IMG/VR virus record: IMGVR_UViG_3300023196_000118
Coordinates: 1 to 20,662 of that record
Source: a virus
Strand: one strand, 5' to 3'
DNA length: 20,662 nt
The notes under the pieces are model-generated. The model did no database searches, was not told where the DNA came from, and was given only the letters and a program-made list of their open reading frames with translations. The position numbers were made by a program, and so were the translations under genes. Shown here one piece after another: positions 1 through 20,662 of this stretch (positions are counted from its first letter, which is position 1; every line of letters starts with the position of its first letter).

Positions 1-1293
1 TATGCCATGTTAGCAGACCCACTACGTTATATGGGGCATCCAGCATTTAGTGGATTGCTGTTACGACATACAACAGAAGAACTTCGTGAACTTATTTTTA
101 AGTCACAAGAGTTGTACCCACAAATATGGCCGGGCATTAAATGGTCGGAAAGAAAGATGCAGTGGACTGCCCCTTCTGGTGCGAGACTGTGGATGTCTTA
201 TCTTGATAGAGATGATGACGTTCTTCGCTATCAGGGTCTAGCGTTTAGCTGGATAGGCTTTGACGAGTTAACACAGTGGCAGTCACCTTATGCATGGAAT
301 TACATGCGTTCTCGTCTTAGGTCTACTGCACCAGATTTGCCTATCTTTATGAGGGCAACAACAAACCCGGGTGGAAGAGGTCACGCTTGGGTTAAGAAGA
401 TGTTTATTGACCCATCATCTTATGGAAAGGCATTTGATGCGACAGATATTGAAACAGGTGAAGTTCTCAAGTATCCAGCAGGGCATAGCAAAGCTGGGAA
501 GTCTCTTTTCAAAAGGCGGTTTATACCTGCTAGGCTATCTGATAACCCCTATCTCGCAGATGCTGGTGACTACGAAGCCATGCTCCTGTCGCTCCCAGAG
601 CAACAAAGAAGACAACTCTTGGACGGTGACTGGGATATTAAAGAAGGTGCAGCGTTCACAGAGTTTAACCGTGATATTCATGTTGTTGAACCTTTTAATA
701 TTCCTAGCAATTGGGTTAAGTTCAGAGCATGTGATTATGGGTATGGCTCTTACAGTGGTGTTGTATGGTTTGCTGTCGCACCGTCTGAGCAACTTATTGT
801 GTACAGGGAACTGTATGTGTCAAAAGTCTTAGCTACTGACTTAGCTGACATGATACTAAACTTAGAGGCAGAAGATGGCAATATTAAGTATGGTGTGCTT
901 GATAGTTCTCTTTGGCATAAGCGTGGCGATACTGGTCCTAGCCTTGCAGAGCAAATGATACAGAAGGGTTGCAGGTGGCGACCTTCAGACAGAAGCAGAG
1001 GTAGTCGCGTTTCTGGCAAGAATGAAATTCACAGACGACTACAGGTAGATGAATTTACGGAAGAACCTAAACTTGTGTTTTTTAGTAGTTGCACAGACAT
1101 TATCTCACAATTGCCATCATTGCCACTGGATAAAAAAAATCCAGAGGATATTGACACGAAAGCAGAAGACCACTTGTATGATGCGATGAGGTATGGTATA
1201 ATGTCACGACCAAGGTTTAGTATATTTGACTATGACCCACATGGAAGACCGGGTGGTGGTATGCCAATAGCAGATTCAACATTTGGATATTAA
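1..1293 (+). CDS. terL: terminase large subunit, 3' part (5' end outside window)
   Basis: DNA-packaging motor ATPase and nuclease; it cuts the concatemer and pumps DNA into the procapsid through the portal. The frame is open to the window edge, so the ATG at 7 is not a real start and the Walker A loop must lie upstream. Numbering from that ATG: Walker B (FSWIGFDEL, D86-E87), a coupling motif TTNPGG at 118-123, then an RNase H-like nuclease with acidic residues at D243 (CDYGYG), D299 (GVLDSS) and D388/D392 (EDHLYDAMRYG). The spacing fits large terminases. The stop at 1291-1293 abuts the portal gene, whose Shine-Dalgarno AAGGA overlaps this stop codon. Motif recognition is strong; assignment to a packaging type (cos or pac) is not possible here. 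Confidence 0.95.
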   Translation, partial: YAMLADPLRYMGHPAFSGLLLRHTTEELRELIFKSQELYPQIWPGIKWSERKMQWTAPSGARLWMSYLDRDDDVLRYQGLAFSWIGFDELTQWQSPYAWNYMRSRLRSTAPDLPIFMRATTNPGGRGHAWVKKMFIDPSSYGKAFDATDIETGEVLKYPAGHSKAGKSLFKRRFIPARLSDNPYLADAGDYEAMLLSLPEQQRRQLLDGDWDIKEGAAFTEFNRDIHVVEPFNIPSNWVKFRACDYGYGSYSGVVWFAVAPSEQLIVYRELYVSKVLATDLADMILNLEAEDGNIKYGVLDSSLWHKRGDTGPSLAEQMIQKGCRWRPSDRSRGSRVSGKNEIHRRLQVDEFTEEPKLVFFSSCTDIISQLPSLPLDKKNPEDIDTKAEDHLYDAMRYGIMSRPRFSIFDYDPHGRPGGGMPIADSTFGY

Positions 1294-1303
1294 GGATATT
1301 AAA

Positions 1304-3439
1304 ATGGCAGAAGATGAAAATGTAATGATTGAAGATGACGCTATCTCATTAGAAGATGTAGAGGATAGCAATGCTGAAGATGTAGATGTTTCTTCCATTA
1401 TTCCTTTTATTAGAGAAAGATTTAAAAGAGCAGAAGACTATAGATACCAAGATGAACAAAGATGGCTAAAAGCATATCGTAATTATCGTGGATTATACGG
1501 ACCTGACGTAGCTTTTACCGAATCGGAGAAGTCACGTGTCTTTATTAAAGTTACCAAAACAAAAACTCTTGCGGCCTATGGGCAAATTGTTGATGTACTT
1601 TTTGCTAATAATAGGTTTCCTCTATCTGTTGACCCTACTGAATTACCAGAAGGAGTTGTCGCAGACGTACACTTTGACCCCCAAGAACCAGAGCAGTTGC
1701 GTGGTGATACTTCATTAAGTAGCCCATACGGATTTGCAGGTGATGGTAAAGACCTACCAGCAGGTGCTACAGAAAAGTCTCTTCAAGATATGCTTGGTGC
1801 TTTAACGGGGAAATTAGAGGGTATAGACGGTCTTAAAGAGGGTGTGGGTAAGACACCTACCTCAGTGACCTTTAGCCCTGCTATGGTGGCTGCAAAGATG
1901 ATGGAGAAGAAAATCCATGACCAGCTAGAAGAATCAGGTGCAAGTAAACATCTTCGTAACTCTGCATTTGAAATGTCTCTATTTGGTACTGGTGTAATGA
2001 AAGGTCCGTTTGCTGTAGATAAAGAATATCCTAATTGGGGAGAGGATGGTGAGTATGACCCAGTTTTCAAAACAATGCCACAAGTTTCCCACGTTTCTGT
2101 TTGGAATTTCTATCCTGACCCTGATGCCAATAATATGGATGAAGCGCAGTATGTTATTGAACGACACAAGATGTCAAGGTCGCAATTACGGAATCTCAAA
2201 AAAAGACCCATGTTCAGGTCAAATGTAATTGATGAAGTAATACAGTTAGGTGAAAACTATACTAAAGAATACTGGGAAGATGACTTAGCTGACTATGCAC
2301 CAGAACACGGTGTAGAAAGATTTGATGTATTAGAATACTGGGGTATGGTTGATACAGATGCTATGGAAGAGGCAGGTGTTGAGATACCTAAAGAACTAAC
2401 GGAGTTAGATGAGTTACAAGCAAACGTGTGGATTTGTAATGGCAAGTTACTGCGTATGGTGCTTAACCCATTTAAACCATCTAAGATACCATATCATGCC
2501 GCACCATATGAATTAAATCCTTATTCATTCTTTGGTGTAGGTATTGCTGAGAACATGGATGATACACAGACACTAATGAATGGCTTTATGCGTATGGCTG
2601 TTGACAATGCTGTGTTATCAGGCAATCTGATTGTAGAAGTAGATGAGACAAACCTAGTGCCGGGTCAAGACTTATCATTATACCCCGGCAAGGTGTTCCG
2701 AAGACAAGGTGGCGCACCCGGTCAGGCTATCTTTGGTACAAAGTTCCCGAATGTATCCAGTGAGAACATGATGCTGTTTGACAAGGCTCGTGTACTTGCA
2801 GATGAAAGCACAGGCTTCCCATCTTTTGCACATGGACAGACAGGTGTATCAGGAGTAGGTAGAACTGCTAGTGGTATATCTATGTTAATGAATGCCGCGG
2901 CTGGTGGTACAAAAACTGTCATAAAGAATGTAGATGACTATCTATTACGTCCTATAGGAGAAGGACTGTTTAGATTTAATATGCAGTTTGACTATGACCC
3001 ACAAATAAAAGGTGACTTAGAAGTAAGAGCAAGAGGTACTGAAAGTCTTATGGCTAATGAAGTACGTAGTCAAAGATTGATGCAGTTCTTACAGGTAGCA
3101 AGTAATCCATCACTTGCACCGTTTGCTAAGTTCCAATATATTATCCGTGAGATTGCAAAGTCTATGGAATTAGACCCCGACAAAGTTACTAACAATATGG
3201 ATGAAGCCGCTATTCAGGCAGAACTGATGAAAGGCTTCCAACAAGAACAGCCACAAACACCAGAGGCTCAAGCTAATCCGCTAGACCCAACAGGTGCAGG
3301 TGGGGGTAACATAGGAACAGGGCAAGTACCAGTTCCGGGCGAACAAGGATTTAGTGCAAATGGACAACAACCGCAAGCAGATACTCAGCAATCTCAAAAC
3401 GCTGGTCAACCACCCGAAGCAATGGGAGGCATTCAGTAG
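1304..3439 (+). CDS. portal protein
   Basis: Forms the ring at the unique capsid vertex, through which DNA enters and leaves and to which the tail attaches. At 711 residues the length matches the large portals of podoviruses. Family-like signals are the segment VWNFYPDPDANN followed by DEAQYVIERHKMS, typical of P22-type portals, and the helix-rich C-terminal half. The last ~70 residues are rich in Gln, Pro and Gly and probably disordered. An in-frame TTG at 1283 would add 7 residues, but ATG 1304 has AAGGA at 1292-1296, seven bases upstream, so I use ATG. Position directly after terminase supports the call. The 3' end overlaps the next gene by 80 bases in another frame. Confidence 0.9.
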   Translation: MAEDENVMIEDDAISLEDVEDSNAEDVDVSSIIPFIRERFKRAEDYRYQDEQRWLKAYRNYRGLYGPDVAFTESEKSRVFIKVTKTKTLAAYGQIVDVLFANNRFPLSVDPTELPEGVVADVHFDPQEPEQLRGDTSLSSPYGFAGDGKDLPAGATEKSLQDMLGALTGKLEGIDGLKEGVGKTPTSVTFSPAMVAAKMMEKKIHDQLEESGASKHLRNSAFEMSLFGTGVMKGPFAVDKEYPNWGEDGEYDPVFKTMPQVSHVSVWNFYPDPDANNMDEAQYVIERHKMSRSQLRNLKKRPMFRSNVIDEVIQLGENYTKEYWEDDLADYAPEHGVERFDVLEYWGMVDTDAMEEAGVEIPKELTELDELQANVWICNGKLLRMVLNPFKPSKIPYHAAPYELNPYSFFGVGIAENMDDTQTLMNGFMRMAVDNAVLSGNLIVEVDETNLVPGQDLSLYPGKVFRRQGGAPGQAIFGTKFPNVSSENMMLFDKARVLADESTGFPSFAHGQTGVSGVGRTASGISMLMNAAAGGTKTVIKNVDDYLLRPIGEGLFRFNMQFDYDPQIKGDLEVRARGTESLMANEVRSQRLMQFLQVASNPSLAPFAKFQYIIREIAKSMELDPDKVTNNMDEAAIQAELMKGFQQEQPQTPEAQANPLDPTGAGGGNIGTGQVPVPGEQGFSANGQQPQADTQQSQNAGQPPEAMGGIQ

Positions 3440-3575: not shown

Positions 3576-6500
3576 TAATGAATTTCTTGAATCCTATGTA
3601 AATATACTAGGAGATATAGAAGGTAAAGAAGGTGGCGACACCACCACAGATATTTTTACTAGAGAATTAGGAATTGTAAATACTTTAGGAATAGACCCTG
3701 CTGATTATCCCAACAATCCCAGAGGATTAGCAAAAGCAGTAGCCGAAAAAAATATTCAAGAATTAAAAAGAATAGGTGTAAATTGGGATGAGTTGCCACT
3801 GTCTATGAAATACAATGCATTAGATATGCAATTTAACTTTGGTAGTTTAAACGTAAAAGCAAAAAATTATTTAGCTAATTTAAAAACAAAAAACTATGCA
3901 GGTGCAATAAATGAAACATTGGATGCATTAAGTGCAAGTGACCCTAAAGATGGAAAGCAAAGACCCGTAAAAGGTATAGCATTAAGAAGAGCAAAGTTTT
4001 ATAATTTAGTTGCTTCAGACCTTGGTATTCCACTAATAACTAGTGTAGATGCTGTAAATCAAGACAATGCTCAAAAGAGTGCAAAGTTTACTTATAAGTT
4101 AGACGATGGTAAGGATATAGTAAAACCTTTTACTGTTATGTCATTACATAGTAGAAGTGTACCCGGTGCTGAAAAAGTATTAGGTTTTGAAGATAAAGTT
4201 GTTATTAAACCAACAGGGGAAGAACTTCCTGTATCTGATTTAGAAGAAAAAGGAATAGGACAGCAAACTGAATCTGCATTTCCTATGACAGGTGATGAAC
4301 AATACTTAGACCAAGAAGGACCTATAAGAGATACAGGAGAACTAGTAGAGCCTGAAGAAAGTCGTGGTATTTTAGATAGAATAAAAGATTTTATTAGTCC
4401 AGATACAGATGAAGAAAAAAAATTAAAAGAAATACGAAATCAAAAATCTGAAGTATTAGATTTGCCAAATGAGTTATCTGAAGCTAGAGACTTCAGTGTT
4501 CTTAGAAAAATGTATGAAGATAAAAAGTTTAATGAAGGTGGTTTATCTTTATCTGAACAGATGGATACAATACAAGACCCAGCAGTTAAACAAGATACAG
4601 ATAAAACAACATTAGATAAATTAAAAGATGTAGCAAAGTTTGGTGCAGAGTTTATTCCCGGAGTTGGGGAAGCTATGGCAGTAAAACGTGTATCAGATGC
4701 TATGGATGAAAAAGACTATGTTGGTGCTGGTATAGAAACTGCAGCAGGTGCATTAGGTTTGCTTCCTATAGTAGGTGATGTAGCAGGTAAAGGGTTACGT
4801 GTAGCCACTAAAAAGTTTCGCAAAGCTGATGTAGAAGAAGCAGAAAAATTAATAGCAGACCCTAAAAAAATTGATGAGTGGAGAAGTTTAAATAAACTTC
4901 CAGAATCTCAGAGACAAAAAAATATACCAGAAGCGCAACAAGCTGCAGAAGATTTGTTTCAAAATAAAATTAAATCTAAAGAAGCACGTAAACAAATTAA
5001 GGATGCATTTCCAGAACCAAAGTTATATACATCCGAAACAATGCCAGAAATGCCTACTGTAACGGATGTTGTTGGTTCTATGGGTAAAAAGTCTGAAAAG
5101 GGTATTTTAGGTGTACGGGGTTTTGATTTAGAGCCGGGTCAGCGTGTGGGTGCTAGACTAGATATACCAGCTTATAATGAGTATGATAAGTGGGTTGTTT
5201 CAATACACGATGGAAAAAGTAGAAATGGTTCAGTAGTAGGTTATGGACAAGCTATAAGATTGAAGAATATTGAGTTTGGCTCAGACCCAAAAGTTGCATT
5301 AGATATAGCAAAAGGCAAACGAGTAGCAAAAACTACAGGTGAAGAAAAACCTATGGGTAAGGCGACAATAGCCCGTGTATTTGGTGACTACGTTCCTGAA
5401 GACCCCTATGAGTTACAAATGTTTGCTAAGAAAATATTAGCCGACAAAGATTCAAGTTGGACACAAGTAGGTATGAATCCTTATAGAGGTAGTTATTTTT
5501 ATGACAAAGCTACAGGAACACCTATAACACGAGCAGATGAAGTGATACAAGTAGGTCCATTAGTTCTTGCAAAAAATGTTACAAAACCTAAAGTATCTGA
5601 ATTAAAACAAATGTTTAAACCTGCTGCAAGAACAACAGAAGGTAAATTAAGAATTTTTAGTGAAGGTGGAGCAGTACCAATGAAAGAACAAATGAGTATG
5701 TTTGACGATGGCGGTCTTATGGATGAAGGTAATACAATAGACCCTATATCAGGTAATGATGTTCCACCCGGTTCAACACAAGAAGAAGTACGTGATGATA
5801 TACCTGCACAGTTAAGTGAAGGTGAGTTTGTATTTCCTGCTGACGTAGTGCGATACATTGGTCTTGAAAAACTTATGCAGATGAGACAGCAAGCTAAGAT
5901 GGGTTTGCAAACGATGGATGACATGGGGCAAATGGGTAATAGTGAAGAAGCTGTTATGCCAGATAATTTACCATTTGAATTATCTGACCTTGACATGGAT
6001 GATGACCCAGTAGAAATGAACACAGGTGGAGTTGCTGGTGTAAGCACTGTTCCTTCACAAGTACCTGCTACTTCGTTTGTGCAAGCACCTGAAGCACCTA
6101 CTGTACCTACTCCTGCTCCAACACCTACAGCGTCTACTGTTCCAATAGCACCTACATACACACCACCTACACAACAAGCACCACCTATTGCTCCAGATTA
6201 TAGTGAACTTGCATACAAAGATGTAATGTCAACTCCTGAATTAGCTGCAAGACTTGTAGATATAATTAATCCAACTACGGGTGAAAAAAGAACAATTAAT
6301 TTTATTCCCGGTGTAACACCAATACCAGATGGTTTTGTGTTGGCTAGTGAATATACTGCACCTGATGTACAAGCAACATCTGTAACACCTACTGTTGGTC
6401 AAGCGCAAGTACGTAAAGATGATGATGATGACCGTTCAGCAGATGAATCAATAAGAAAAGCAAAAGAAGCCAATGCTAGAAAAGCTATGATAGATGAATT

Positions 6501-7152
6501 GTTTGGAAAAGATTATAGTGCAACTAATTTTGCTCCTACTTTTGCTGATTTAACAGGAGGTTTAAAGCCGGGAATGGTATCAACTGGGGGTTATCTTATA
6601 GGAGATAATGGAGAATATTTAGACCCATCAACAGGTATGCAAAAATTCTTCGGTCTTGATAGTGCTAAATACGCAATAAACCCTTCTAGTGCGCCACCTT
6701 TAAAATTAAAACCGGGTGGAGTTAACGAAAGATTTATTAAAATAGCAATTGAAAAATCAATTAAAGATGATTCACCTAGAAGAAAAGGTGATACAGTATC
6801 AACTGAAACAGGTTCTGTGTCTGCTGATATGATACTAGATTCTATTAGAAAAGAAAAAGAAGAAGCAGATGCACCACCAACAAGAACACCAAAACAACAA
6901 GCTGCAATGGATGCATTTAATAAACAAGTAGCTGAAGCACGAGCTATTGAAAAACAAAAAAAGGAAGATAGAAAAGATAGAGAAACAGCAACAAAAGAAA
7001 GATATAAAGCACCAGCATTAAAAGAAAAAGCAAAAGATATTGCTCAAGGTGGTAAAAGAAGAACTTTTGGTGGTTTTAAAGAAGGTGGTTTAGCATCAAA
7101 GCCTAAACCTAAACCTAAGAAGATGAGGCAAGGTGGATTAGCCTCAAGATAA
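3559..7152 (+). CDS. large composite virion protein with lysozyme-like N-terminus
   Basis: A 1197-residue protein, probably packaged in the virion and ejected at infection (inference from domains and position). Residues ~8-160 resemble the lysozyme fold: an acidic IEGKEGG near 20-26, a helix pattern around YNALDMQFNFGS and a terminal LRRAKFYNL that mirrors the RR..E..L end of phage lysozymes. The catalytic Glu (E21 or E24) is uncertain. Residues ~361-412 hold two Gly/Ala-rich hydrophobic stretches with LLPIVGD, possibly membrane-active. Residues ~515-680 form a compact unknown domain (WVVSIHDG, then PLVLAKN). Residues ~700-818 carry the marine-phage block PAQLSEGEFVFPADVV. A Pro/Thr-rich linker covers ~828-890. 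The C-terminus is Lys/Gly-rich with GGLAS twice. ATG 3568 is an alternative start. The gene is more A-rich than its neighbours. Confidence 0.75.
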   Translation: MKLMDDNEFLESYVNILGDIEGKEGGDTTTDIFTRELGIVNTLGIDPADYPNNPRGLAKAVAEKNIQELKRIGVNWDELPLSMKYNALDMQFNFGSLNVKAKNYLANLKTKNYAGAINETLDALSASDPKDGKQRPVKGIALRRAKFYNLVASDLGIPLITSVDAVNQDNAQKSAKFTYKLDDGKDIVKPFTVMSLHSRSVPGAEKVLGFEDKVVIKPTGEELPVSDLEEKGIGQQTESAFPMTGDEQYLDQEGPIRDTGELVEPEESRGILDRIKDFISPDTDEEKKLKEIRNQKSEVLDLPNELSEARDFSVLRKMYEDKKFNEGGLSLSEQMDTIQDPAVKQDTDKTTLDKLKDVAKFGAEFIPGVGEAMAVKRVSDAMDEKDYVGAGIETAAGALGLLPIVGDVAGKGLRVATKKFRKADVEEAEKLIADPKKIDEWRSLNKLPESQRQKNIPEAQQAAEDLFQNKIKSKEARKQIKDAFPEPKLYTSETMPEMPTVTDVVGSMGKKSEKGILGVRGFDLEPGQRVGARLDIPAYNEYDKWVVSIHDGKSRNGSVVGYGQAIRLKNIEFGSDPKVALDIAKGKRVAKTTGEEKPMGKATIARVFGDYVPEDPYELQMFAKKILADKDSSWTQVGMNPYRGSYFYDKATGTPITRADEVIQVGPLVLAKNVTKPKVSELKQMFKPAARTTEGKLRIFSEGGAVPMKEQMSMFDDGGLMDEGNTIDPISGNDVPPGSTQEEVRDDIPAQLSEGEFVFPADVVRYIGLEKLMQMRQQAKMGLQTMDDMGQMGNSEEAVMPDNLPFELSDLDMDDDPVEMNTGGVAGVSTVPSQVPATSFVQAPEAPTVPTPAPTPTASTVPIAPTYTPPTQQAPPIAPDYSELAYKDVMSTPELAARLVDIINPTTGEKRTINFIPGVTPIPDGFVLASEYTAPDVQATSVTPTVGQAQVRKDDDDDRSADESIRKAKEANARKAMIDELFGKDYSATNFAPTFADLTGGLKPGMVSTGGYLIGDNGEYLDPSTGMQKFFGLDSAKYAINPSSAPPLKLKPGGVNERFIKIAIEKSIKDDSPRRKGDTVSTETGSVSADMILDSIRKEKEEADAPPTRTPKQQAAMDAFNKQVAEARAIEKQKKEDRKDRETATKERYKAPALKEKAKDIAQGGKRRTFGGFKEGGLASKPKPKPKKMRQGGLASR

Positions 7153-8312: not shown

Positions 8313-9371
8313 ATGGCATTTTCTACTGCTGCCGGGTACGGTAATCTTCCTAACGGCAATTTCAGTCCTGTTATTTATAGCAAACAGGTGCAACTTGCTT
8401 TCCGCAAGTCTGCTGTTTGTGAAGCTATCACCAATTCTGATTACTTTGGTGAGATTGCTAACATGGGTGATTCCGTTAAGATTATCAAAGAACCCGAAAT
8501 TACTGTTAAGGCCTACGCACGTGGCACAACTATTACACCACAAGACCTTGACGATGAAGACTTCAGCCTAACAATTGACAAAGCTAACTACTTTGCATTT
8601 AAGGTTGATGATATTGAAGAAGCACACTCACATGTGAACTTCCAACAACTAGCATCTGACCGTGCGGCATACCGTTTGGCTGACCAGTTTGACCAAGACG
8701 TACTTGGTTACTTAACTGGCTTTAAACAGTCTGCTATTCATGGTACACCAGATACAGTAAACTCTACTGTTAATGGTTCTGTAGCCGTGTCAACTGCTGG
8801 TACAGATGAGTTATTATCGTCAATGAAACTTGATGAAGATGACTTTGGTGGTTCTGGTGGAGCTGCACTTGCACTTCAACCTCGTACTGGTGGTGCTACT
8901 GATTCAACACCTGCCGCTGGGGATACATTCCCATTGACAGTTATCGCTCGTATGTCACGTTTGCTAGACCAGCAAAATGTTGATTCTACTGGGCGTTGGT
9001 TGGTTGTTGACCCAGTATTCATGGAACTATTGAAAGACGAAGATTCTCGTTTATTCAATGCTGACTTCGGTGGTTCTGGTCTTCAGAACGGTCAGGTCAG
9101 TACACAGATTCATGGCTTTACTGTGTACACCTCTAATAATCTTCCTTCTGTTGGAACAGGTCCGTCCTTTACTGGTACGAACTCTACTACCAACTTTGGT
9201 ATGATTGTTGCAGGACATGATTCTGCTGTTGCTACTGCGGAGCAGATTAACAAGACCGAAACTTATCGTGACCCTGACAGCTTTGCTGACATTGTTCGTG
9301 GTATGCATTTATATGGTCGCAAGATACTTCGTCCTGAAGCTCTTGTTAACGCCAAATATCACTTGGCATAG
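8313..9371 (+). CDS. major capsid protein
   Basis: The main shell subunit, 352 residues, of presumed HK97 fold. Evidence is its place right after the scaffold and its own strong promoter and ribosome-binding site, plus the capsid-style pattern: an N-terminal arm (FSPVIYSKQVQLAFRKS), an extended E-loop-like stretch (MGDSVKIIKEPEITVKAYARG region, ~50-72), a long spine-helix region (VNFQQLASDRAAYRLADQF, ~108-127) and a P-domain end (RDPDSFADIVRGMHLYGRKI). It belongs to a coat family common in marine podovirus-like genomes. GC content and codon use look more optimised than in the neighbours (more C-ending codons), as expected for the most abundant product. Confidence 0.88.
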   Translation: MAFSTAAGYGNLPNGNFSPVIYSKQVQLAFRKSAVCEAITNSDYFGEIANMGDSVKIIKEPEITVKAYARGTTITPQDLDDEDFSLTIDKANYFAFKVDDIEEAHSHVNFQQLASDRAAYRLADQFDQDVLGYLTGFKQSAIHGTPDTVNSTVNGSVAVSTAGTDELLSSMKLDEDDFGGSGGAALALQPRTGGATDSTPAAGDTFPLTVIARMSRLLDQQNVDSTGRWLVVDPVFMELLKDEDSRLFNADFGGSGLQNGQVSTQIHGFTVYTSNNLPSVGTGPSFTGTNSTTNFGMIVAGHDSAVATAEQINKTETYRDPDSFADIVRGMHLYGRKILRPEALVNAKYHLA

Positions 9372-10386: not shown

Positions 10387-12381
10387 ATGTCGTTCTATGA
10401 CATTAACGATGCTCTTTTTGGTACAGGAAAATATGGTTCTGCAAGATATGGAATTGTATCTCCTAACGTATCAATAACAGGCGTTAGTGCGACAGGCGCA
10501 ATACAAGCACCTAGCATAGGTGGTTTAGAAGTAGACATTAGTGAAGTACTAACTTCGGTTAGTGCTACTTCTAGTTTAGGAACAATAGTTCCTAGTGTAT
10601 CTGATAGTGTGACATTAACTGGTGTATCTACTGCTATTGCTAGTGAAATTAGCACAGGTGTAACATCAAGACTTATTTCAGTTGCCGCAGCTGACGAAGA
10701 TTTTTATACAGAACGAACTGCTGACATTAGTGCTTACATAGGAGCAACAGCAAGACTAGTTATTTTATATCAATCAACCTCTGATTTTAGAGGTGACGTA
10801 CAACTAGATGACTTTAATATTGGTGGAAATACGTTTACTGATTTTTCATCTAGTCAAAGTTTTCAAACTAATAATGTACCAGACAATAGTAAAGTAACAT
10901 CTGGTAATTTAGATAATATACAATCAGAATTAGACAATGTTACATTCCAAAATATTGGAACTAGTACAAGTCTTAGAGGAAGATGGGTCAGAGATTCTGG
11001 TGGTACTCCTTCAGGCAGTACGGGTTTAACATCAGGTAACACTGGTAGTTTTTATTTATATGCTGAAGTAACTGGTACAAGTACATCTAACGGAGGACTT
11101 GATAACGATTTTTGGTTACGTTCACCATCTGTTACAATTAATAATGGTACATTAAGTTTCTTTAGCGCACAATCAGGTTCTGGTTGTGGTCCGTTTTTCG
11201 CTTATCTTGATGTAAGTTCTGCTCCAGCTTCTAGTGCAGGAACAGGTGTTGGAACTGTACAAGTAAACATACAAGAAGACATTACTGGTGTAAGTGCTAC
11301 TGGTTCTATAAACTCTGTTGTTATTAGTAGAGTAGTAACAATATCAGGAGTAGCTAGTACTTCCGCATTAGGTTCAATAGAACCGCAGGTAACTGAAGAT
11401 ATTACTGGTGTAAGTGCCACAGGTGGTATTGGTACATTTACAGTTGCTAATACAGTAGGTCCTACAGGTATTGTAGGCACAACAAATAGTCCTGCTCTTC
11501 AAGTAAATATACAAGAAGATATAGTAGGTACAAGTGCTACGTCAGCAGTAGGTTCAGTAACAACTGCAACTGCCGCAGGATTAACAGGTGTAAGTGCAAC
11601 TGGTGCAATATCGGGTTTATCTGTTGGTCAGTTTGAAATTGATGTTAGTGAAGTTATTCCAACAGGTGTAAGTGCTACAGGTGCTGTCCAACAAATTATA
11701 CCATCTTCTGTTGTAGGTTTAACAGGAGTAAGTGCGACAGGCGCAGTTTCGTCTTTAGCTACGGGGCAATTTGAAATTGATGTTAGTGATGTACTAACAG
11801 CCGTTGTAGCAACTGGTACAGCAGGTAGTTTAGGTGCTGGTGTTAGTGTCACACCTACTGGTATACTAGGTACTTCTGGTCTAACTGCTGTCAGTGTTAA
11901 CATAAAGAAAGTTCCTACGGGTGTTGTTGGAACATCATCAGCAGGGGCATTACAATTAAATCCTACGGCTGGTTTAGATGGAGTTGAAGCTACTGGAACT
12001 GCTGGTAGTATACTAGTTGGTGCTAGTGAAAACATAGAAAGTGTATCGGCTACTTCTTCTATTGGCACTATTAGTATAAATGTTAAAAAACTACTAACAA
12101 GTATACTGGGTACATCAGCGTTAGGTTCTATAACTTCTACTGGAGTTATCTTTGACTTTGATACAGTTAAAGATTTATATGGACGAAAACGTATTGTTTA
12201 TGTAGAAGGATTTACAGAACAGTCTAAAGAAAGACGTATATACGTACCGAATGAAAACAGAACAGTATCCGTAGAAAAAGTTGGTTTAAATAGAAGAACA
12301 ATATTTGTTCCTCAAGAAAATAGAAAAGTATATATTCAGCCTTATTCTACTTCTGCTGAAAGACGAGTAAGAGCCGCATAG
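10387..12381 (+). CDS. repeat-rich tail or fibre protein with MAM-like insertion
   Basis: 664 residues. The N-terminus (FGTGKYGSARYG) is a short glycine/aromatic anchor. About 17 copies of a degenerate TGVSATGAI-type beta repeat, 20-26 residues apart, fill ~27-590. An insertion at ~99-280 interrupts the repeats. It contains YIGATARLVILYQSTSDF then VQLDDFNIGG (to ~147), and later RGRWVRDSGGTPS (~198-209), FYLYAEV, LRSPSV and LSFFSAQSG (to ~278); these resemble the two halves of a MAM/jelly-roll domain. The C-terminal ~70 residues carry three RR-x-IYVPxENR-like units. The next gene is a fibre-tail adaptor-like protein, so an extended virion surface protein is likely. AGAGG precedes ATG 10387. 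Confidence 0.68.
   Translation: MSFYDINDALFGTGKYGSARYGIVSPNVSITGVSATGAIQAPSIGGLEVDISEVLTSVSATSSLGTIVPSVSDSVTLTGVSTAIASEISTGVTSRLISVAAADEDFYTERTADISAYIGATARLVILYQSTSDFRGDVQLDDFNIGGNTFTDFSSSQSFQTNNVPDNSKVTSGNLDNIQSELDNVTFQNIGTSTSLRGRWVRDSGGTPSGSTGLTSGNTGSFYLYAEVTGTSTSNGGLDNDFWLRSPSVTINNGTLSFFSAQSGSGCGPFFAYLDVSSAPASSAGTGVGTVQVNIQEDITGVSATGSINSVVISRVVTISGVASTSALGSIEPQVTEDITGVSATGGIGTFTVANTVGPTGIVGTTNSPALQVNIQEDIVGTSATSAVGSVTTATAAGLTGVSATGAISGLSVGQFEIDVSEVIPTGVSATGAVQQIIPSSVVGLTGVSATGAVSSLATGQFEIDVSDVLTAVVATGTAGSLGAGVSVTPTGILGTSGLTAVSVNIKKVPTGVVGTSSAGALQLNPTAGLDGVEATGTAGSILVGASENIESVSATSSIGTISINVKKLLTSILGTSALGSITSTGVIFDFDTVKDLYGRKRIVYVEGFTEQSKERRIYVPNENRTVSVEKVGLNRRTIFVPQENRKVYIQPYSTSAERRVRAA
10477..12150 (+). 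repeat. coding repeats, TGVSATG type
   Basis: Degenerate direct repeats within the 664-residue gene, built around GGTGTAAGTGCNAC and its variants. The best-conserved copies lie near 11287, 11407, 11587, 11665 and 11725. The block is interrupted by the non-repeat insertion at roughly 10680-11230. Units differ mainly at third codon positions, showing protein-level conservation rather than recent DNA amplification, although several copies stay close enough to recombine. Confidence 0.75.
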
Positions 12382-13463: not shown

Positions 13464-15217
13464 TGGCTGATAATTGGCAAACATATTCAATACTTTTTAA
13501 AGGTGGTTTGATTACTAACTTATCACCTTATCAACATGGTATAGAAGCACCGGGGTCTGCTCGTATTCTACGTAACTTTGAACCTTCTGTGTTTGGTGGT
13601 TATCGTAGAGTTGAAGGATATGAAAAGTACGATATTGCTACTGTGCCGAACACAGGTCTTATTCGTGGCGTATTTAAATTTGGCGACCATGTGTATGCAG
13701 TGCGAGGTGATGATTTATTTAGGTCTACTGGCACTCTTATAACTGCTAAAGTAAATGTAGCAACTAGTTCTTCTGCTACTGTAACTGTAGATACTAAAGC
13801 TGGTACTATAGCATCTGGTATGCAAGTTGTAGGAACAGGTATTACAGGAACTGTAACAGTTAGTAGCATATCTGCACAAGATACTAATACAGCAACAGTT
13901 GTGCTTTCTACTACTGTAACATTTGCCGATAACACTGACTTAACTTTTTCAGCAGGTTGGACACAAGTTACAGATAATGGTACGTTTAGTAGTAGTGGAG
14001 TTACCATAGGTGGTTCTGGGAAGACACGTTTTTTAAAATACAACTTTGATGGTACAGACAAATTTATGCTAGTAGACGGTACAGGCAAACCGTTTAGACT
14101 AAGTGGCAGTACTTTTACACAATTGTCTTCATTACCTGCTGACACATCTGGTGCTACTCAAATTATTAATTTTAAAAATCATGTTTTCTTAGCAGTAGGT
14201 AACACTTTAGTTTACTCAGCACCTTATGAAGATGATGACTTTACTGTTGCTAACGGTGGTGGTTCTATAAACATAGGCGACCCTATTACAGGATTAATTG
14301 TTTTCCGTGAACAGTTAGTTATTTTTAGTCAAAGCACTATAAATGTTTTACAGGGTAGTAGCATATCAGACTTTACTTTGCAACCTGTGTCAAGAAATCT
14401 TGGTTGTGTATCAGAAGATACTATACAAGAAATAGGTGGTGACATTATTTTCTTAGGTCCTGATGGTCTTAGATTATTTAGTGCTACAGATAAAATTGGT
14501 GACTTCGGACTTGCTGTTATATCTAAACCAATACAGACAGAGATAATAGATTTAACATCTTCTAGTCCCGGTGGTTTTTCTAGTACAGTAATTAGAGAGA
14601 AAAGTCAATTTAGATTATTTGGATATAATGCTAGTAATAGTGATGCGGCATCAAAAGGTATAGCTGGTACACAATTACAAGAAGGCATACAATGGAATGA
14701 CCTACGTGGTTTTAATGCTTATGTAGTATATAGTGAGTATGACTTTGGCACTGCTGGTGCATTTGAGGCAATATACTTTGGCAATGCTACAGGTTATGTA
14801 TATCAAATGGAGCAAGGAAATACGTTAGATGGTGCAAATATCGCGGCAAGTTTTGCTACACCCTTTGTTCCATTAGGAGATTCAGAAGTTAGGAAAACTG
14901 TTTATAAAGGAACTACTTACTTAGATGTTAATGGTACATTTGATTTAGAGTATTCATTAAAATTTGATTATGACCAGCCTGATTCTGTACAACCCGATTC
15001 TATATTAACAACAGATTCTGCGGCTTCAGTTACATTTGGTGAAGGTATATATGGAACATCTCCATTTGGTAATAAACAGAAAGCTATTTACGAAGTACAG
15101 AATATTGGTTCAGGGTTTACTATATCTATTTTGTATGAAACAACTGGTTCAGGAACAGACGCAGTATTTTCTGTAGATTCTGCTACATTAGAATATACTG
15201 TGAACGATAGGAGATAA
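13463..15217 (+). CDS. tail nozzle (tail tubular B-like) protein
   Basis: 584 residues, predicted beta-propeller, forming the distal short tail. The opening FKGGLITNLSPYQHG, APGSARILRNFEPS and GGYRRVEGYEKYD is the hallmark start of podovirus nozzle or stabilisation proteins (an N..P....G....L.NFE....GGYRR..GYE pattern). Further blade-like repeats include RFLKYNFDGTDKFMLVDGTG and VTGL/ITGLIVFREQLVIF-type strands. A Thr/Val-rich insertion at ~95-170 (TVTVDTKAG, then TGTVTVSSISAQD) looks like an added Ig-like or sheet domain. The start overlaps the adaptor stop by one base. The gene ends three bases before the tail fibre gene, whose AGGAG lies in this gene's last codons. Confidence 0.8.
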   Translation: MADNWQTYSILFKGGLITNLSPYQHGIEAPGSARILRNFEPSVFGGYRRVEGYEKYDIATVPNTGLIRGVFKFGDHVYAVRGDDLFRSTGTLITAKVNVATSSSATVTVDTKAGTIASGMQVVGTGITGTVTVSSISAQDTNTATVVLSTTVTFADNTDLTFSAGWTQVTDNGTFSSSGVTIGGSGKTRFLKYNFDGTDKFMLVDGTGKPFRLSGSTFTQLSSLPADTSGATQIINFKNHVFLAVGNTLVYSAPYEDDDFTVANGGGSINIGDPITGLIVFREQLVIFSQSTINVLQGSSISDFTLQPVSRNLGCVSEDTIQEIGGDIIFLGPDGLRLFSATDKIGDFGLAVISKPIQTEIIDLTSSSPGGFSSTVIREKSQFRLFGYNASNSDAASKGIAGTQLQEGIQWNDLRGFNAYVVYSEYDFGTAGAFEAIYFGNATGYVYQMEQGNTLDGANIAASFATPFVPLGDSEVRKTVYKGTTYLDVNGTFDLEYSLKFDYDQPDSVQPDSILTTDSAASVTFGEGIYGTSPFGNKQKAIYEVQNIGSGFTISILYETTGSGTDAVFSVDSATLEYTVNDRR

Positions 15218-16561: not shown

Positions 16562-16590
16562 TTGACAAACCACGCTGTTTGTGGTATAAT
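16562..16590 (+). promoter_or_regulatory. perfect consensus sigma70 promoter with internal dyad
   Basis: TTGACA at 16562-16567, exactly 17 bp of spacer, TATAAT at 16585-16590. The start would be near 16597, with AGGAG at 16603-16607 and ATG at 16616. Inside it lies a perfect inverted repeat, ACAAAC (16565-16570) and GTTTGT (16577-16582), overlapping the -35 box. A second, offset repeat pairs ACCAC (16569-16573) with GTGGT (16581-16585). The dyad fits an operator. The promoter makes the downstream small-gene array a separate transcription unit readable by host polymerase. Confidence 0.8.
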
Positions 16591-16615
16591 TATAATACAA
16601 TTAGGAGTATAAACA

Positions 16616-16960
16616 ATGGCAAACGCTTTTTTATCAGAGACAGATAAAGAAATAGGCACAGGCACTGCCACCGTTTTTACTTGCGGTTCATCTACAGAAT
16701 CTACTATAATAGGTTTGAGTGTTGCTAATAGAGTAACATCTCAAATATTAGTAGACGTTGAACTAGATGCTTCAAATAGAACTAGTGGTTCAGAAGATAA
16801 GGTGTTTCTTGTAAAAGATGCACCTATTCCTGTAGGTGGTACGTTGGTAGTTATTGGTGGCGACCAAAAGGTTGTGCTTGAGCCGGGTGATACTATTAAA
16901 GTAACATCTGATACTGCATCTTCTGCTGACGTTGTTCTTAGTCATCTTGATATTACATAA
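16616..16960 (+). CDS. small virion-associated protein, marine phage family
   Basis: 114 residues, all-beta: TGTATVFTCGSS, IIGLSVANRV, ILVDVEL, then PIPVGGTLVVIGGDQKVVLE and GDTIKVTSDTASSADVVLS. The VIGGDQKVVLEPGD segment recurs in small tail-region proteins of marine phages, whose function is not established; the beta-sandwich pattern suggests a structural or fibre-accessory subunit. It is first in the unit driven by the 16562 promoter, with a good AGGAG, so it is probably the best-expressed member. The PGD uses CCG-GGT, in line with the CCWGG avoidance described in the findings. Confidence 0.68.
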   Translation: MANAFLSETDKEIGTGTATVFTCGSSTESTIIGLSVANRVTSQILVDVELDASNRTSGSEDKVFLVKDAPIPVGGTLVVIGGDQKVVLEPGDTIKVTSDTASSADVVLSHLDIT

Positions 16961-16971
16961 GGATATATAGT

Positions 16972-17816: not shown

Positions 17817-17818
17817 GT
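17801..17818 (+). repeat. 18-bp junction repeat, copy 1
   Basis: CGGAGATTTAGCATGAGT. It encodes the end of the upstream protein (GDLA, stop), the ribosome-binding GGAG, and the first codons (Met-Ser) of the next gene. It is exactly repeated at 18232-18249, 431 bp downstream. Confidence 0.85.
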
Positions 17819-18247
17819 GAAATTAAAGTAGATAAAATCTCAGGCAAGACTTCTGATAATGCCGTTACAGTAACAGGTGAGAATGGTAGTACGCAAACAT
17901 CTTTGCAACAGGGGTTGGCAAAAGGCTGGTGTAATTTTGAACAAGCGTCAAGTCACACGGTTAGAGACAGCTTGAACATTGCAAGTTTAACAGATGTTAC
18001 TGAGGGTATTACCAATACAAATTATACAAATAATTTTGCTAATGATGATTACGTTGCCGCTGGTCATGCTGGTAGGCAAGCCGCTACTAGCACAACTGCA
18101 TACTGGCTTTTTCCAACAAGTAGCACCGTTGTTTACAGTACATCAGCTACAAGTTGGCAAGGGGGTTTTAGCACTGGCACTTCAAGCGCAATGGGTATTT
18201 TAGATTTAGTTTTAGCCCTTTGTACTATTCACGGAGATTTAGCATGA
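17813..18247 (+). CDS. small fibre-like protein, MSEIKVDKIS N-terminus
   Basis: 144 residues. The first ~25 (MSEIKVDKISGKTSDNAVTV) are the MS.(L/I)KVD.(I/L) signature of marine phage fibre-like genes. The body has aromatic-rich beta segments (GWCNFEQASSHTVRDSLN, then AYWLFPTSSTVVYS) and ends CTIHGDLA, the same GDLA end as the gene before it. It starts in an ATGA overlap with GGAG seven bases before ATG. The gene is exactly bracketed by the two 18-bp repeats, like a cassette. The GWCNF-type body is seen in small marine phage proteins of unknown function. Confidence 0.65.
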   Translation: MSEIKVDKISGKTSDNAVTVTGENGSTQTSLQQGLAKGWCNFEQASSHTVRDSLNIASLTDVTEGITNTNYTNNFANDDYVAAGHAGRQAATSTTAYWLFPTSSTVVYSTSATSWQGGFSTGTSSAMGILDLVLALCTIHGDLA

Positions 18248-18249
18248 GT
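18232..18249 (+). repeat. 18-bp junction repeat, copy 2
   Basis: An identical copy of the repeat at 17801-17818, again spanning upstream GDLA-stop, GGAG and next-gene start. Similarity continues beyond it: TTAAAGTAGATAAAATCTC after copy 1 versus TTAAAAGTAGATAATCTC after copy 2. Confidence 0.85.
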
Positions 18250-18807
18250 ACTTTAAAAGTAGATAATCTCCTGTTGTCAAATAATAATACAGGTACTGGT
18301 AGAATACTTGAAATGGTTAGTGGTGTGTGTGATGGAAGTTCAATTACTACTTTAAGTGGCACATATACGTTTGAAAACGTAACAGAAAGACAAGTTCTAA
18401 GTATAACACACACTGACCAAAAAGGTAGTCTTATAAGTTACAAACCCCCAGAAGGAACAAAAAGAATAATATATGAGTCTGTTTTTCATCTATATGGTGT
18501 TGATGCAGATGCTATGGGGCATCATAAATTACTTGTTGACAGTATAGAAGTTGAAGCAGCAAGAGTAACTTACAGAGCAGAAGACCTTCAAGGTAGAGTT
18601 TCTTTTAAATGGATGTTTACTGTTGGTGGTGTTGATAATGCTAATTATGGAAAGTTTAGCAGTTGGACAAGTTTAAAAGAAATTAAAATGCAAGCTAGAC
18701 AATACACCAGTGATTTTGAATATGATTTACACGCTTCATCTCATTGGGATGGAAGTGGCACAGATATTTTTTGTGTTCCACAATTATTTATAACAGCAAT
18801 AGGATAA
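18244..18807 (+). CDS. fibre-like protein, MSTLKVDNL N-terminus
   Basis: 187 residues. The start is ATG 18244 in the ATGA overlap with GGAG upstream; the longer frame from TTG 18220 would read through the previous gene's end and is not needed. The N-terminus MSTLKVDNLLLSNNN is the recurrent tag. The body is a predicted beta-sandwich (ILEMVSGVCDGSSITTL, VLSITHTDQKGSLISYKPP, IIYESVFHLYG) with a C-terminal WTSLKEIKMQARQY and HWDGSG segment. It differs from the preceding genes outside the tag, fitting exchangeable binding domains on a common anchor. Precise role unknown. Confidence 0.66.
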   Translation: MSTLKVDNLLLSNNNTGTGRILEMVSGVCDGSSITTLSGTYTFENVTERQVLSITHTDQKGSLISYKPPEGTKRIIYESVFHLYGVDADAMGHHKLLVDSIEVEAARVTYRAEDLQGRVSFKWMFTVGGVDNANYGKFSSWTSLKEIKMQARQYTSDFEYDLHASSHWDGSGTDIFCVPQLFITAIG

Positions 18808-18810
18808 ACA

Positions 18811-19284
18811 ATGGATACACCACAATTCAAAGGCACACATTTATTTGACAGACTATGTTGGGCTAAAGAAAGTTTAGATGGGGTGCAATCAGACTATCGT
18901 GTAGTCTATGAAGATAACATAGATGGCTGTGCAAAGATACTTGTGCCTGACCCTAACTGGATGGCTTGTGCATTACAGGGTGGTATACTTCCTCCAGTGT
19001 GGGTATATTGGGAATTAAAGAAAGATGAAGCACAACCAGACTTCAAGAAGCATACTCGTGGTTATCTGTTACATAATACAGAGCCTATGGAAGCTATGAC
19101 TGAAGAACAGGCAATAGAATACCTTATTCAGAAAGATGTGCCAGAGCATGTGTGGATGAATTGGGATGAAGGTAATCGTCCTAAGATGGTTATCTGTAGG
19201 AAGAATCAACTTCCTGCAACTAGAGAATGGCGAAACTCTTGGCGCATCAGCGAAGAAGTTACCGTTGAAAAAGAAGCGGCTTAA
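18811..19284 (+). CDS. conserved marine phage protein, possible fibre-assembly factor
   Basis: 157 residues, soluble and Trp- and charge-rich, unlike the Thr/Ser-rich fibres around it. Segments such as FDRLCWAKESLDGVQSDYRVVYED, DPNWMACALQGGILPPVWVYWEL, then EEQAIEYLIQKDVP and VWMNWDEGNRPKMVICRKNQ are conserved in marine phage proteins I recall only as hypothetical. It ends with REWRNSWRIS, resembling the R-FR-AW motif near the start of the following protein. Non-structural composition and position among fibre genes suggest a chaperone or assembly protein (inference). AGGA precedes ATG 18811 within the end of the previous gene. Confidence 0.6.
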   Translation: MDTPQFKGTHLFDRLCWAKESLDGVQSDYRVVYEDNIDGCAKILVPDPNWMACALQGGILPPVWVYWELKKDEAQPDFKKHTRGYLLHNTEPMEAMTEEQAIEYLIQKDVPEHVWMNWDEGNRPKMVICRKNQLPATREWRNSWRISEEVTVEKEAA

Positions 19285-19301
19285 ACTATAGGAGTATTAA
19301 A

Positions 19302-19676
19302 ATGGCTGTAACAACTTATATTGTTGATAAGGACGGTAATCAAGCTAATTCCGCTAGTGTTACCAAACCTTCAGACAGAAACTTTCGTGAGGCATGGACA
19401 CTTTCTGGTAATGTAATATCAGAAGATTTAGCCACTGCAAAAACAATTTTTAAAGATAAGATTAGAGAAGTTCGTGCGCCTCTACTTGAAGCAGAAGATG
19501 TTGTATATATGAAAGCATTAGAAGCAGATGATGCAAGTGCAAAGACTGCGTCTGTTACAAAGAAAACAAATTTTCGTAACGCTCCTGCCGCAAGTGCAAT
19601 AACAAATGCAACAACGATTGCAGAACTTAAAGCCGCATGGGATACTAGTTTATTAGGTGCAAGCCCTTACGCATAG
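19302..19676 (+). CDS. tail fibre assembly chaperone-like protein
   Basis: 124 residues, helical and charged. TTYIVDKDGNQANSASV is followed by DRNFREAWTLSG (25-36), then NVISEDLATAKTIFKDKIRE, RAPLLEAEDVVYMKALEADD and a C-terminal FRNAPAASAITNATTIAELK. The order (R-FR-AW, DKIRE-R, ALE-GDD-like, LR-AP, TT-EL) matches small phage proteins encoded beside tail fibre genes that resemble fibre-assembly chaperones. AGGAG lies upstream of ATG 19302. With the preceding gene it forms a pair sharing the R-x-xRNxW/FREAW motif. Chaperone function is an inference from family style and position. Confidence 0.6.
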   Translation: MAVTTYIVDKDGNQANSASVTKPSDRNFREAWTLSGNVISEDLATAKTIFKDKIREVRAPLLEAEDVVYMKALEADDASAKTASVTKKTNFRNAPAASAITNATTIAELKAAWDTSLLGASPYA

Positions 19677-19685
19677 GAGTAGGCT

Positions 19686-20159
19686 ATGACACTAACTAAA
19701 ATAGCTGATGGGGGAATGCCGTCAGGTGCTGTATTGCAAGTTGTGCAAACGGTAAAGACAGATTCTTTTAGTACATCAAGCAGTTCTTTTGTAGATATAA
19801 CTGGTCTATCTGCGGCTATAACCCCCTTGTCTACATCAAGTAAAATACTTGTTGATGTAAGAATAGGTGGATATAATACTGATGCGGCTACGATTGTTTT
19901 ATTTAACATATTAAGAGGTAGCACTACACTTTCAACAGGCACAGCAGGAGAAGGAACAGCCTGTACTTTTGGGATTACAGTAAATGCTTCTAGGTCAGAA
20001 ACTGTTTCTATGTGTCTTTTAGATAGTCCTTCTACTACTAGTGCAACTACGTACAAAGTACAAACTAGAACCGATAGTAGCAATAGTCTTACTATAAACG
20101 AAAGAAGTGGGCAGTATAGCACTATCAGCACAATAACTTTAACAGAGATAGCAGGGTAG
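19686..20159 (+). CDS. fibre-tip-like protein, MTLTKIADGG type
   Basis: 157 residues, all-beta. The N-terminus MTLTKIADGGMPSGAVLQVV is a widespread opening of small marine phage and bacterial tail-fibre-like proteins; SSFVDITGLSAAITPLSTSS then KILVDVRIGG and the end STITLTEIAG complete the family pattern. These are thought to be host-contact or tip proteins, although evidence for individual members is limited. GGAG (in GCATAGGAG, overlapping the previous stop) precedes ATG 19686. It carries one internal CTFGITV strand and two Cys, unlike its neighbours. Confidence 0.66.
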   Translation: MTLTKIADGGMPSGAVLQVVQTVKTDSFSTSSSSFVDITGLSAAITPLSTSSKILVDVRIGGYNTDAATIVLFNILRGSTTLSTGTAGEGTACTFGITVNASRSETVSMCLLDSPSTTSATTYKVQTRTDSSNSLTINERSGQYSTISTITLTEIAG

Positions 20160-20163
20160 ACCG

Positions 20164-20622
20164 ATGCCATACATAGGAAAATCCCCCACTAATGGTGTAA
20201 GAACACGCTACCTATATACAGCTACTGATGCACAGACAGCGTTCTCAGGTAGTGACAGCAGTTCTAATGTTCTTGTATACACAGATGGTATGTACATGGA
20301 TGTGTATCAGAATGGTGTACTACTAAAGCCTACTACAGATTATGCTGCAACAAACGGCACAACTGTAACATTGACAACAGGCGCACAAGGTAATGATGTA
20401 CTTGAGATGGTTGTCTATGATGTATTTAATATACAAGGTAACTACACCAAAACTGAATCAGATACACGCTATCCTTTCAAAGGTAACAACAGTATCATAC
20501 GTCTTAATGGTCAAACAATAAGCAATGACCTTACAATAGATAGTGATGAGAATGGTATGTCAGCAGGTCCTATTACACAGAGTGCTACAGTTACTGTTAA
20601 TGGATATTGGAGCATAGTATGA
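20164..20622 (+). CDS. small fibre-like protein, MPYIG type (copy 2)
   Basis: 152 residues. It shares the tag MPYIG(K)SPT and the C-terminal trailer (GQTISNDLTIDSDENG, then AGPITQSATVTV) with the 16972 gene, but the central domain differs: LVYTDGMYMDVYQNGVLLKP is a DVY-NGV(L)L-type segment, followed by YVFNIQ-like and YTKTESDTRYPFKG stretches common in phage fibres. Like copy 1 it ends in an ATGA overlap (20619-20622) with an MSTL/MTSVL-type gene. A fibre or adhesin subunit is likely. The ribosome-binding site is weak (AGGG at some distance), so expression may rely on read-in translation from upstream. Confidence 0.7.
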   Translation: MPYIGKSPTNGVRTRYLYTATDAQTAFSGSDSSSNVLVYTDGMYMDVYQNGVLLKPTTDYAATNGTTVTLTTGAQGNDVLEMVVYDVFNIQGNYTKTESDTRYPFKGNNSIIRLNGQTISNDLTIDSDENGMSAGPITQSATVTVNGYWSIV

Positions 20623-20662
20623 CAAGTGTATTAAATGTAGATACGATTGCGGCAAAGAATGG
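20619..20662 (+). CDS. start of another small fibre-like gene (cut by window end)
   Basis: ATG 20619 overlaps the preceding stop (ATGA) and opens MTSVLNVDTIAAKNG, the same short tag style (MS.L.V..I) as the genes at 17415, 17813 and 18244. The frame is open to the window end. This reproduces the MPYIG-then-MSTL gene pair seen at 16972-17816. Confidence 0.6.
   Translation, partial: MTSVLNVDTIAAKN

What the first reader, a model, noticed from the sequence alone, without database searches (positions are those of the whole stretch)
1..20662. CCWGG is also absent, and Pro codons before Gly are switched to achieve it
I find no CCAGG or CCTGG, but about 18 CCSGG (e.g. 131, 367, 1249, 2660, 3334, 4159, 5766, 6308, 13551, 14567, 16881) and at least 13 GGWCC. 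In an AT-rich genome CCWGG should exceed CCSGG. The cause is visible: Pro is usually CCT or CCA, yet every Pro-Gly pair I checked uses CCC or CCG. At 5764-5772 Pro-Pro-Gly reads CCA CCC GGT, with the switch only at the second Pro. With GATC, this means both the Dam-type and the Dcm/EcoRII-type target words are purged, a paired signature that may fingerprint the host's methylation or restriction repertoire.
Basis: seen in the sequence. Interest (0 to 1): 0.87.

Follow-up and report, generated by a model that had tools for sequence, protein, structure and literature searches.

The report
Marine phage purged of CCWGG sites
This ocean virus of bacteria has rewritten its DNA, mainly by swapping synonymous proline codons in front of glycine, so that a word that common bacterial DNA-cutting enzymes are known to target never occurs; its relatives do the same or make the opposite choice, which suggests a record of which enzymes each lineage has had to survive.

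Summary
The window is a fragment of an HMO-2011-type marine podovirus. It has 0 CCWGG (16.5 expected when codons are shuffled among synonymous positions; minimum 10 in 1000), 19 CCSGG (5.5 expected) and 13 GGWCC (13.9). All 17 Pro-Gly pairs use CCC or CCG; elsewhere Pro is CCA/CCT in 226 of 260. GATC is 0 (52 expected).

Of 18 CCGG, 17 sit at Pro-Gly; outside, 1 against about 14 expected. Pro-Gly always spells CCNGG, so it forces a choice. Of 182 loci (window, named relatives, related contigs) with at least 5 Pro-Gly pairs, 89 use only CCS (0.2 expected), 45 only CCW (27 expected), 48 both. The state changes at least 18 times on a capsid tree. Phages isolated on one host can be in opposite states, so the isolation host is not what is fingerprinted. 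GATC purging is only loosely tied to CCWGG purging.

Best explanation: type II restriction-site avoidance, a known kind, by synonymous recoding under conflicting CCWGG and CCGG pressures. No cognate host enzyme could be shown. Deamination and codon-pair bias are unlikely; no phage-encoded cause was found.

The parts
1..20662 (.). HMO-2011-type podovirus fragment without any CCWGG or GATC
130..135 (+). Pro-Gly CCG GGC
367..372 (+). Pro-Gly CCG GGT (overlaps CCCGGG 366-371)
1249..1254 (+). Pro-Gly CCG GGT
2660..2665 (+). Pro-Gly CCG GGT
2684..2689 (+). Pro-Gly CCC GGC
2717..2722 (+). Pro-Gly CCC GGT
3335..3340 (+). Pro-Gly CCG GGC
4162..4167 (+). Pro-Gly CCC GGT
4657..4662 (+). Pro-Gly CCC GGA
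5134..5139 (+). Pro-Gly CCG GGT
5764..5772 (+). Pro-Pro-Gly CCA CCC GGT: only the Pro before Gly is switched
6307..6312 (+). Pro-Gly CCC GGT
6568..6573 (+). Pro-Gly CCG GGA
6712..6717 (+). Pro-Gly CCG GGT
13550..13555 (+). Pro-Gly CCG GGG
14567..14572 (+). Pro-Gly CCC GGT
16883..16888 (+). Pro-Gly CCG GGT
8332..8336 (+). CCGGG out of frame in the capsid gene: the only CCGG in the window not at a Pro-Gly pair

Best explanation
Restriction-site avoidance by synonymous recoding. Over many generations the phage lineage has met hosts whose type II enzymes cut CCWGG (EcoRII-like) and GATC, and more weakly or less often CCGG (HpaII-like). Genomes that carried the words were lost, so silent changes removed them. 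A Pro-Gly pair always spells CCNGG, so there the word cannot be removed without changing the protein, and the lineage keeps the less costly form: CCGG (as CCCGG or CCGGG) here, CCWGG in other lineages. Shown: the purge, the codon switch, the conflict at Pro-Gly, the two states and their repeated changes in relatives. Inferred: that restriction by host enzymes is the selecting force, and the identity of those enzymes.
For: Codon-preserving shuffles. 17 of 18 CCGG at Pro-Gly; elsewhere 1 found, 14.2 expected. In 182 loci with at least 5 Pro-Gly pairs: 89 CCS-only (0.22 expected from each locus's own Pro codons), 45 CCW-only (27 expected). 95 CCS-state loci: CCWGG outside Pro-Gly 2, expected 774. 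50 CCW-state loci: CCGG outside Pro-Gly 24, expected about 761 (5 of 569 in the 41 that avoid both words). At least 18 changes between states on the capsid tree; capsids up to 95.7% identical with opposite states. Named records, counted in two pieces each: HMO-2011 0 CCWGG, 0 GATC; HTVC033P 57 CCWGG, 0 CCGG; CRP-738 0 CCWGG, 21 CCGG. DNA methylase matches over the cut-off in 2 of 50 records searched: C5 in CRP-603 and CRP-9, D12 and N6/N4 in none. Deamination products CTWGG and CCWAG not raised: 17 against 18.0, 16 against 17.8. T7 shows the same lean at Pro-Gly: 1:6 against 103:28.
Against: No host enzyme or host methylome was seen; the host of this phage is unknown. Four phages isolated on FZCC0040 differ in state, so that host does not enforce the purge in culture. 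48 of 182 loci are not pure, 37 of them clearly mixed. HTVC115P and CRP-3 purge CCWGG with little CCGG avoidance outside Pro-Gly (15 of 18.4 and 137 of 158.8 expected), ctYwJ313 with partial (39 of 72.0), so the conflict is not general. Methylase absence is not clean: relatives carry annotated methyltransferases outside the three families (CRP-345, CRP-9, CRP-13, phiM6), and PMC6918029 reports a putative C5 methylase in CRP-2 that the family search did not find. Several other words low in the window (CGNCG, GASTC, RAGCTY) have no named enzyme here.
Confidence: 0.8

Rival explanations
1. The phage itself encodes a nuclease that cuts host DNA at CCWGG (or CCGG), and must keep its own genome free of the word.
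For: Would give absolute purging set by phage lineage and not by isolation host, as seen. HNH and endonuclease genes are annotated in relatives, one likened to PacI.
Against: Among 572 protein clusters of 15 named phage records, none is in all 6 CCS-state and no CCW-state phage, or the reverse; best 3 of 6 against 0 of 7, and 0 of 6 against 5 of 7. Proteins under 40 residues and a diverged nuclease could be missed. The window is a fragment, so its own early genes are unseen.
Confidence: 0.08
2. Mutation, not selection: a host Dcm-like methylase makes 5-methyl-C at CCWGG, which decays to T.
For: Would remove CCWGG without any nuclease.
Against: CTWGG and CCWAG are not raised; at Pro-Gly the codons differ in the third base, W against S, not by C to T in the word; zero sites in whole phage records is too complete.
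Confidence: 0.02
3. Codon-pair or tRNA effects at Pro-Gly make CCC/CCG preferable before GGN.
For: In the window alone most of the signal lies at Pro-Gly (3.8 CCWGG expected elsewhere).
Against: The 95 CCS-state loci also lack CCWGG outside Pro-Gly (2 found, 774 expected). Close relatives show the opposite preference. Pro before other G-starting codons is normal.
Confidence: 0.02
4. The words are avoided because host methylation at GATC/CCWGG (orphan Dam- or Dcm-like methylases, methyl-dependent nucleases, repair or replication control) harms the phage, not because unmethylated sites are cut.
For: None of the 50 CCW-state loci is GATC-free, against 35 of 95 CCS-state loci. Marine virus genomes with methylated CCWGG and GATC are reported (passages of PMC9516812).
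Against: Does not predict the CCGG-avoiding mirror state; pairing has no phylogenetically independent support; L041 is GATC-free with normal CCWGG.
Confidence: 0.08

Closest known systems
Recognition-site avoidance in prokaryotic viruses (PMC6286503, BMC Genomics 2018; search listing and three passages seen)
   Same: Short palindromic type II words depleted in phage genomes; a passage reports GATC under-represented in all 46 phages whose hosts encode the enzyme.
   Different: Here depletion is complete and can be followed codon by codon; two avoided words collide at Pro-Gly; the host enzyme is not known. 'CCWGG', 'codon' and 'amino acid' do not occur in that paper's main text.
Phage T7 (its history with EcoRII-type and Dam-type words is recalled)
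   Same: 2 CCWGG and 6 GATC in the whole record; Pro-Gly 1 CCW to 6 CCS against 103:28.
   Different: Unrelated podovirus group; purge less complete; 58 CCGG.
HMO-2011-type phages (PMC9038755, PMC6918029; starts of abstracts in listings and found passages seen)
   Same: Window terminase, portal and capsid are closest to HMO-2011, CRP-345 and CRP-1.
   Different: 'restriction' and 'codon' occur 0 times in the main text of PMC9038755; PMC6918029 has 'restriction' once, for a methylase gene.

Membership tests
Restriction-site avoidance (passive anti-restriction) | Word depleted beyond composition, proteins and codon usage | tested here: met
   0 against 16.5, minimum 10 in 1000 shuffles
Restriction-site avoidance (passive anti-restriction) | Control palindrome of the same letters not depleted | tested here: met
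   GGWCC 13 against 13.9
Restriction-site avoidance (passive anti-restriction) | Phage does not protect the word with its own methylase | tested here: inconclusive
   of 50 records, 0 over the cut-off for D12 or N6/N4 (one weak N6/N4 match in a MAG), 2 for C5 (CRP-603, CRP-9); the window's own record was not in these searches and is a fragment, as most of the 33 contigs are likely to be; other annotated methyltransferases exist in relatives
Restriction-site avoidance (passive anti-restriction) | Host encodes an endonuclease for the word | not testable with these tools
Restriction-site avoidance (passive anti-restriction) | Sites restored reduce infection of a restricting host | not tested
   bench test
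HMO-2011-type phages | Terminase, portal and capsid of the group | tested here: met
   capsid 81% to CRP-345 and HMO-2011; terminase 88% to HMO-2011, CRP-345 and CRP-1
HMO-2011-type phages | About 55 kb genome with replication module | not testable with these tools
   window is a 20.7 kb fragment
m5C decay at a Dcm-like site | Excess of CTWGG/CCWAG | tested here: not met

The most novel reading that the evidence does not exclude
Pro-Gly is a forced-choice readout. Because it must spell CCNGG, the third base of proline before glycine reports, genome by genome, which of CCWGG and CCGG restriction is the heavier burden. In HMO-2011-type phages this readout is pure in 134 of 182 loci, flips repeatedly between close relatives, is uncoupled from the isolation host, and where both words are purged it may have begun to change proteins by removing Pro-Gly itself (CRP-345 7 pairs, 42 expected; CRP-1 13 of 43; CRP-738 17 of 46).
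Probability: 0.45. Interest if true: 0.72.

Novelty: new variant of a known kind. Interest (0 to 1): 0.52.

Why it matters
HMO-2011-type phages are described as dominant and broadly distributed in the ocean (start of the abstract of PMC9038755), and I could find nothing here about the restriction systems of their hosts. A word census plus the Pro-Gly readout could tell, from sequence alone, which type II pressures each uncultured phage lineage lives under and when it changed hosts. It also gives a clean place to ask how strong restriction must be to alter a protein.

Tried and rejected
Chance and composition: rejected. Deamination: rejected. Codon-pair bias: rejected. Phage-encoded determinant: searched by protein clusters, first on partial records, then on whole ones; none found. 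Host through mis-binned phage contigs: the single genome-contig scan gave 8 loci in MAGs labelled Flavobacteriales, Marinimicrobia, Gammaproteobacteria, Bacteroidetes and Blastopirellula, which I take as binning errors, not hosts. I found no way to reach a SAR116 or Roseobacter genome by name, so host enzymes were not examined.

Protein-level purge of Pro-Gly: suggestive only. Over the 200 of 234 loci with enough expected words, those avoiding both words (112) have Pro-Gly 0.73 of expected against 0.81 for the other 88 pooled; permutation 175 of 5000, Gly-Pro control 3073 of 5000. HTVC115P is low (0.47) without CCGG avoidance, and the window is not low (0.75 against Gly-Pro 0.57). Retention of homologous Pro-Gly is lowest in CRP-738, HTVC115P, CRP-345 and CRP-1, but these counts repeat the same sites across donors.

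GATC-CCWGG pairing: tested with independent pairs, not significant.

Rows dropped: one search kept 234 of 370 loci (those under 5 kb, or sharing over 40% of sampled 31-mers with a kept locus, were dropped), then used the 182 with at least 5 Pro-Gly pairs; the tree used 147 of these, those with a capsid match. Methylase searches took 50 records: 16 phage records, 33 virus contigs, 1 MAG. One search counts are over 80 loci, not de-duplicated, and include a copy of HMO-2011 (L060).
Full report
WHAT THE WINDOW IS. The 20662-base window is a virus record. I took 22 ORFs on the + strand as its genes from the ORF list. Family matches name a terminase large subunit, a portal, a capsid and an SU10-type adaptor; a 1197-residue protein and several tail-side genes have no named family. 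Nearest named phages are HMO-2011, CRP-345 and CRP-1; terminase identity to each is 88%. It is therefore an HMO-2011-type phage. Its host is not known.

THE OBSERVATION. CCWGG 0, CCSGG 19, GGWCC 13, GATC 0. Markov expectation for CCWGG is 19.3 to 22.9. A null that shuffles synonymous codons within each gene gives CCWGG 16.5 (10 to 24 in 1000), CCSGG 5.5 (0 to 14), GGWCC 13.9, GATC 51.9 (36 to 69). CCNGG as a whole is near normal (19 against 22.0), so sites are converted, not deleted. Pro before Gly is CCC 7, CCG 10, CCA or CCT 0; other Pro codons are CCA or CCT in 226 of 260.

CCGG is avoided as well. Of 18 CCGG, 17 are the in-frame Pro-Gly sites and one (8332) is elsewhere, against 14.2 expected outside Pro-Gly. 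Pro-Gly must spell CCNGG; CCA/CCT give CCWGG, CCC/CCG give CCGG. So at Pro-Gly two avoided words collide, and this phage always keeps CCGG. A milder parallel exists at Ala-Ala (GCNGC): 18 GCW to 31 GCS, against 481 to 52 for other Ala codons.

RELATIVES. In 80 viral contigs carrying a related capsid, CCWGG totals 49 against 742 expected by a first-order model, GGWCC 490 against 504, GATC 706 against 1527. After adding more loci and named phages, dropping short and overlapping ones and keeping those with at least 5 Pro-Gly pairs, 182 loci remain, the window included: 89 use only CCS, 45 only CCW, 6 are at least 90% CCS, 5 at least 90% CCW, 37 mixed. From each locus's own Pro usage 0.22 CCS-only and 27 CCW-only would be expected. 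CCW-only is thus partly what codon bias gives; CCS-only is not. The 95 CCS-state loci have 2 CCWGG outside Pro-Gly against 774 expected, and 50 of them also avoid CCGG outside Pro-Gly. The 50 CCW-state loci have 24 CCGG outside Pro-Gly against about 761 expected; 41 of them avoid both words there (CCWGG 15 of 306 expected, CCGG 5 of 569). Purging both words is therefore common, and Pro-Gly shows which one gives way. Of the 37 mixed loci, 15 also avoid both words outside Pro-Gly, so a mixed outcome is possible.

CHANGES OF STATE. On a capsid tree of 147 loci the CCS/CCW state changes at least 18 times among the 114 two-state loci, and GATC purging at least 12 times (a FastTree tree of one gene, so recombination could inflate this). 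L005 and L332 have capsids 95.7% identical and opposite states; L005 and the window 93.2%. At five homologous Pro-Gly pairs shared with L005, all five codons are S in the window and W in L005; with L006 and L013, of the window's own state, all five stay S.

GATC. It is 0 in 40 of 182 loci: 35 of 95 CCS-state, 5 of 37 mixed, 0 of 50 CCW-state. This looks like pairing, but 55 CCS-state loci keep GATC, L041 lacks GATC while CCWGG is normal (13 against 13.7), and independent pairs do not confirm it.

ISOLATION HOST. CRP-3, CRP-207, CRP-212 and CRP-235 were all isolated on FZCC0040. Record counts of CCWGG and CCGG are 1 and 219, 32 and 47, 1 and 63, 85 and 3. FZCC0040 in culture evidently tolerates both words, unless these phages carry counter-defences. 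The pressure must come from other hosts or other times. HMO-2011 (host IMCC1322) has 0 CCWGG and 0 GATC in 55282 bases.

MECHANISM. Host type II restriction is the most economical cause: palindromic words, control palindrome untouched, sites outside Pro-Gly affected too in the group, near-complete purging, silent means. DNA methylases are rare in what was searched: over the cut-off in 2 of 50 records for three families (the window's own record was not among them). Against this, other methyltransferases are annotated in relatives, and a C5 methylase reported for CRP-2 in PMC6918029 was not found by the family search. Three genomes (G082, G106, G197) have both EcoRII-C and HpaII matches, the EcoRII-C ones weak in G082 and G106. 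In G106 the EcoRII-C-like gene follows a C5 methylase gene; in G082 the HpaII domain is fused to a C5 methylase. So one bacterium can carry both types of system. Whether such bacteria are hosts of these phages is not known, and the specificities EcoRII = CCWGG, HpaII = CCGG, DpnII = GATC are recalled.

PROTEIN LEVEL. CRP-345, CRP-1 and CRP-738 purge both words and have few Pro-Gly pairs: 7 of 42.2 expected, 13 of 43.1, 17 of 46.0, while Gly-Pro is 26 of 42.2, 26 of 43.1, 38 of 46.0. Across loci the effect is small, HTVC115P is an exception and the window shows no effect, so this stays suggestive.

LITERATURE. Site avoidance by phages is established (PMC6286503, listing and passages). I found no account of the Pro-Gly conflict or of site avoidance in HMO-2011-type phages in the held library: listings and found passages of PMC9038755 and PMC6918029. 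Most subscription papers are not held, so absence from print is not shown.

VERDICT. A true and strong observation of a known kind, with a neat feature that I have not seen described: forced choice at Pro-Gly, pure in 134 of 182 loci and changing often. Host enzymes remain to be shown.

Noticed in passing
window 1-20662: Other palindromes low against codon shuffles: TCGA 2 (22.7), GASTC 1 (16.9), CGNCG 0 (14.5), RAGCTY 2 (15.7), GCYRGC 0 (6.4), GGCC 5 (16.7).
   Followed up: partly
window, Ala-Ala pairs: Ala before Ala is GCS in 31 of 49 against 52 of 533 for other Ala; HMO-2011 leans the same way, 63 of 152 against 29 of 390: a second forced-choice word, GCWGC.
   Followed up: partly
L095 (HTVC115P): Zero GATC, CASTG, AGSCT, ACGT, GGCC, CCWGG, ACSGT and GCGC in 49.8 kb: an unusually long list of absent words.
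   Followed up: no
L092 (CRP-603): TCWGA 0 (118 expected), AAWTT 0 (106), AATT 19 (208) by a first-order model.
   Followed up: no
L098-L105: HMO-2011-type phage contigs binned into MAGs named Flavobacteriales, Marinimicrobia, Gammaproteobacteria, Bacteroidetes and Blastopirellula; contigs of the same names and lengths occur in two different MAGs.
   Followed up: no
   Followed up: partly
window 10387-12381: 664-residue protein with many imperfect repeats of the type 'ITGVSATGAI', no PHROGs match at E 0.001.
   Followed up: no
L112, L113 (CRP-603, CRP-9): C5 methylase genes near the left end; both phages lean to CCW at Pro-Gly and have 3 CCGG each.
   Followed up: no
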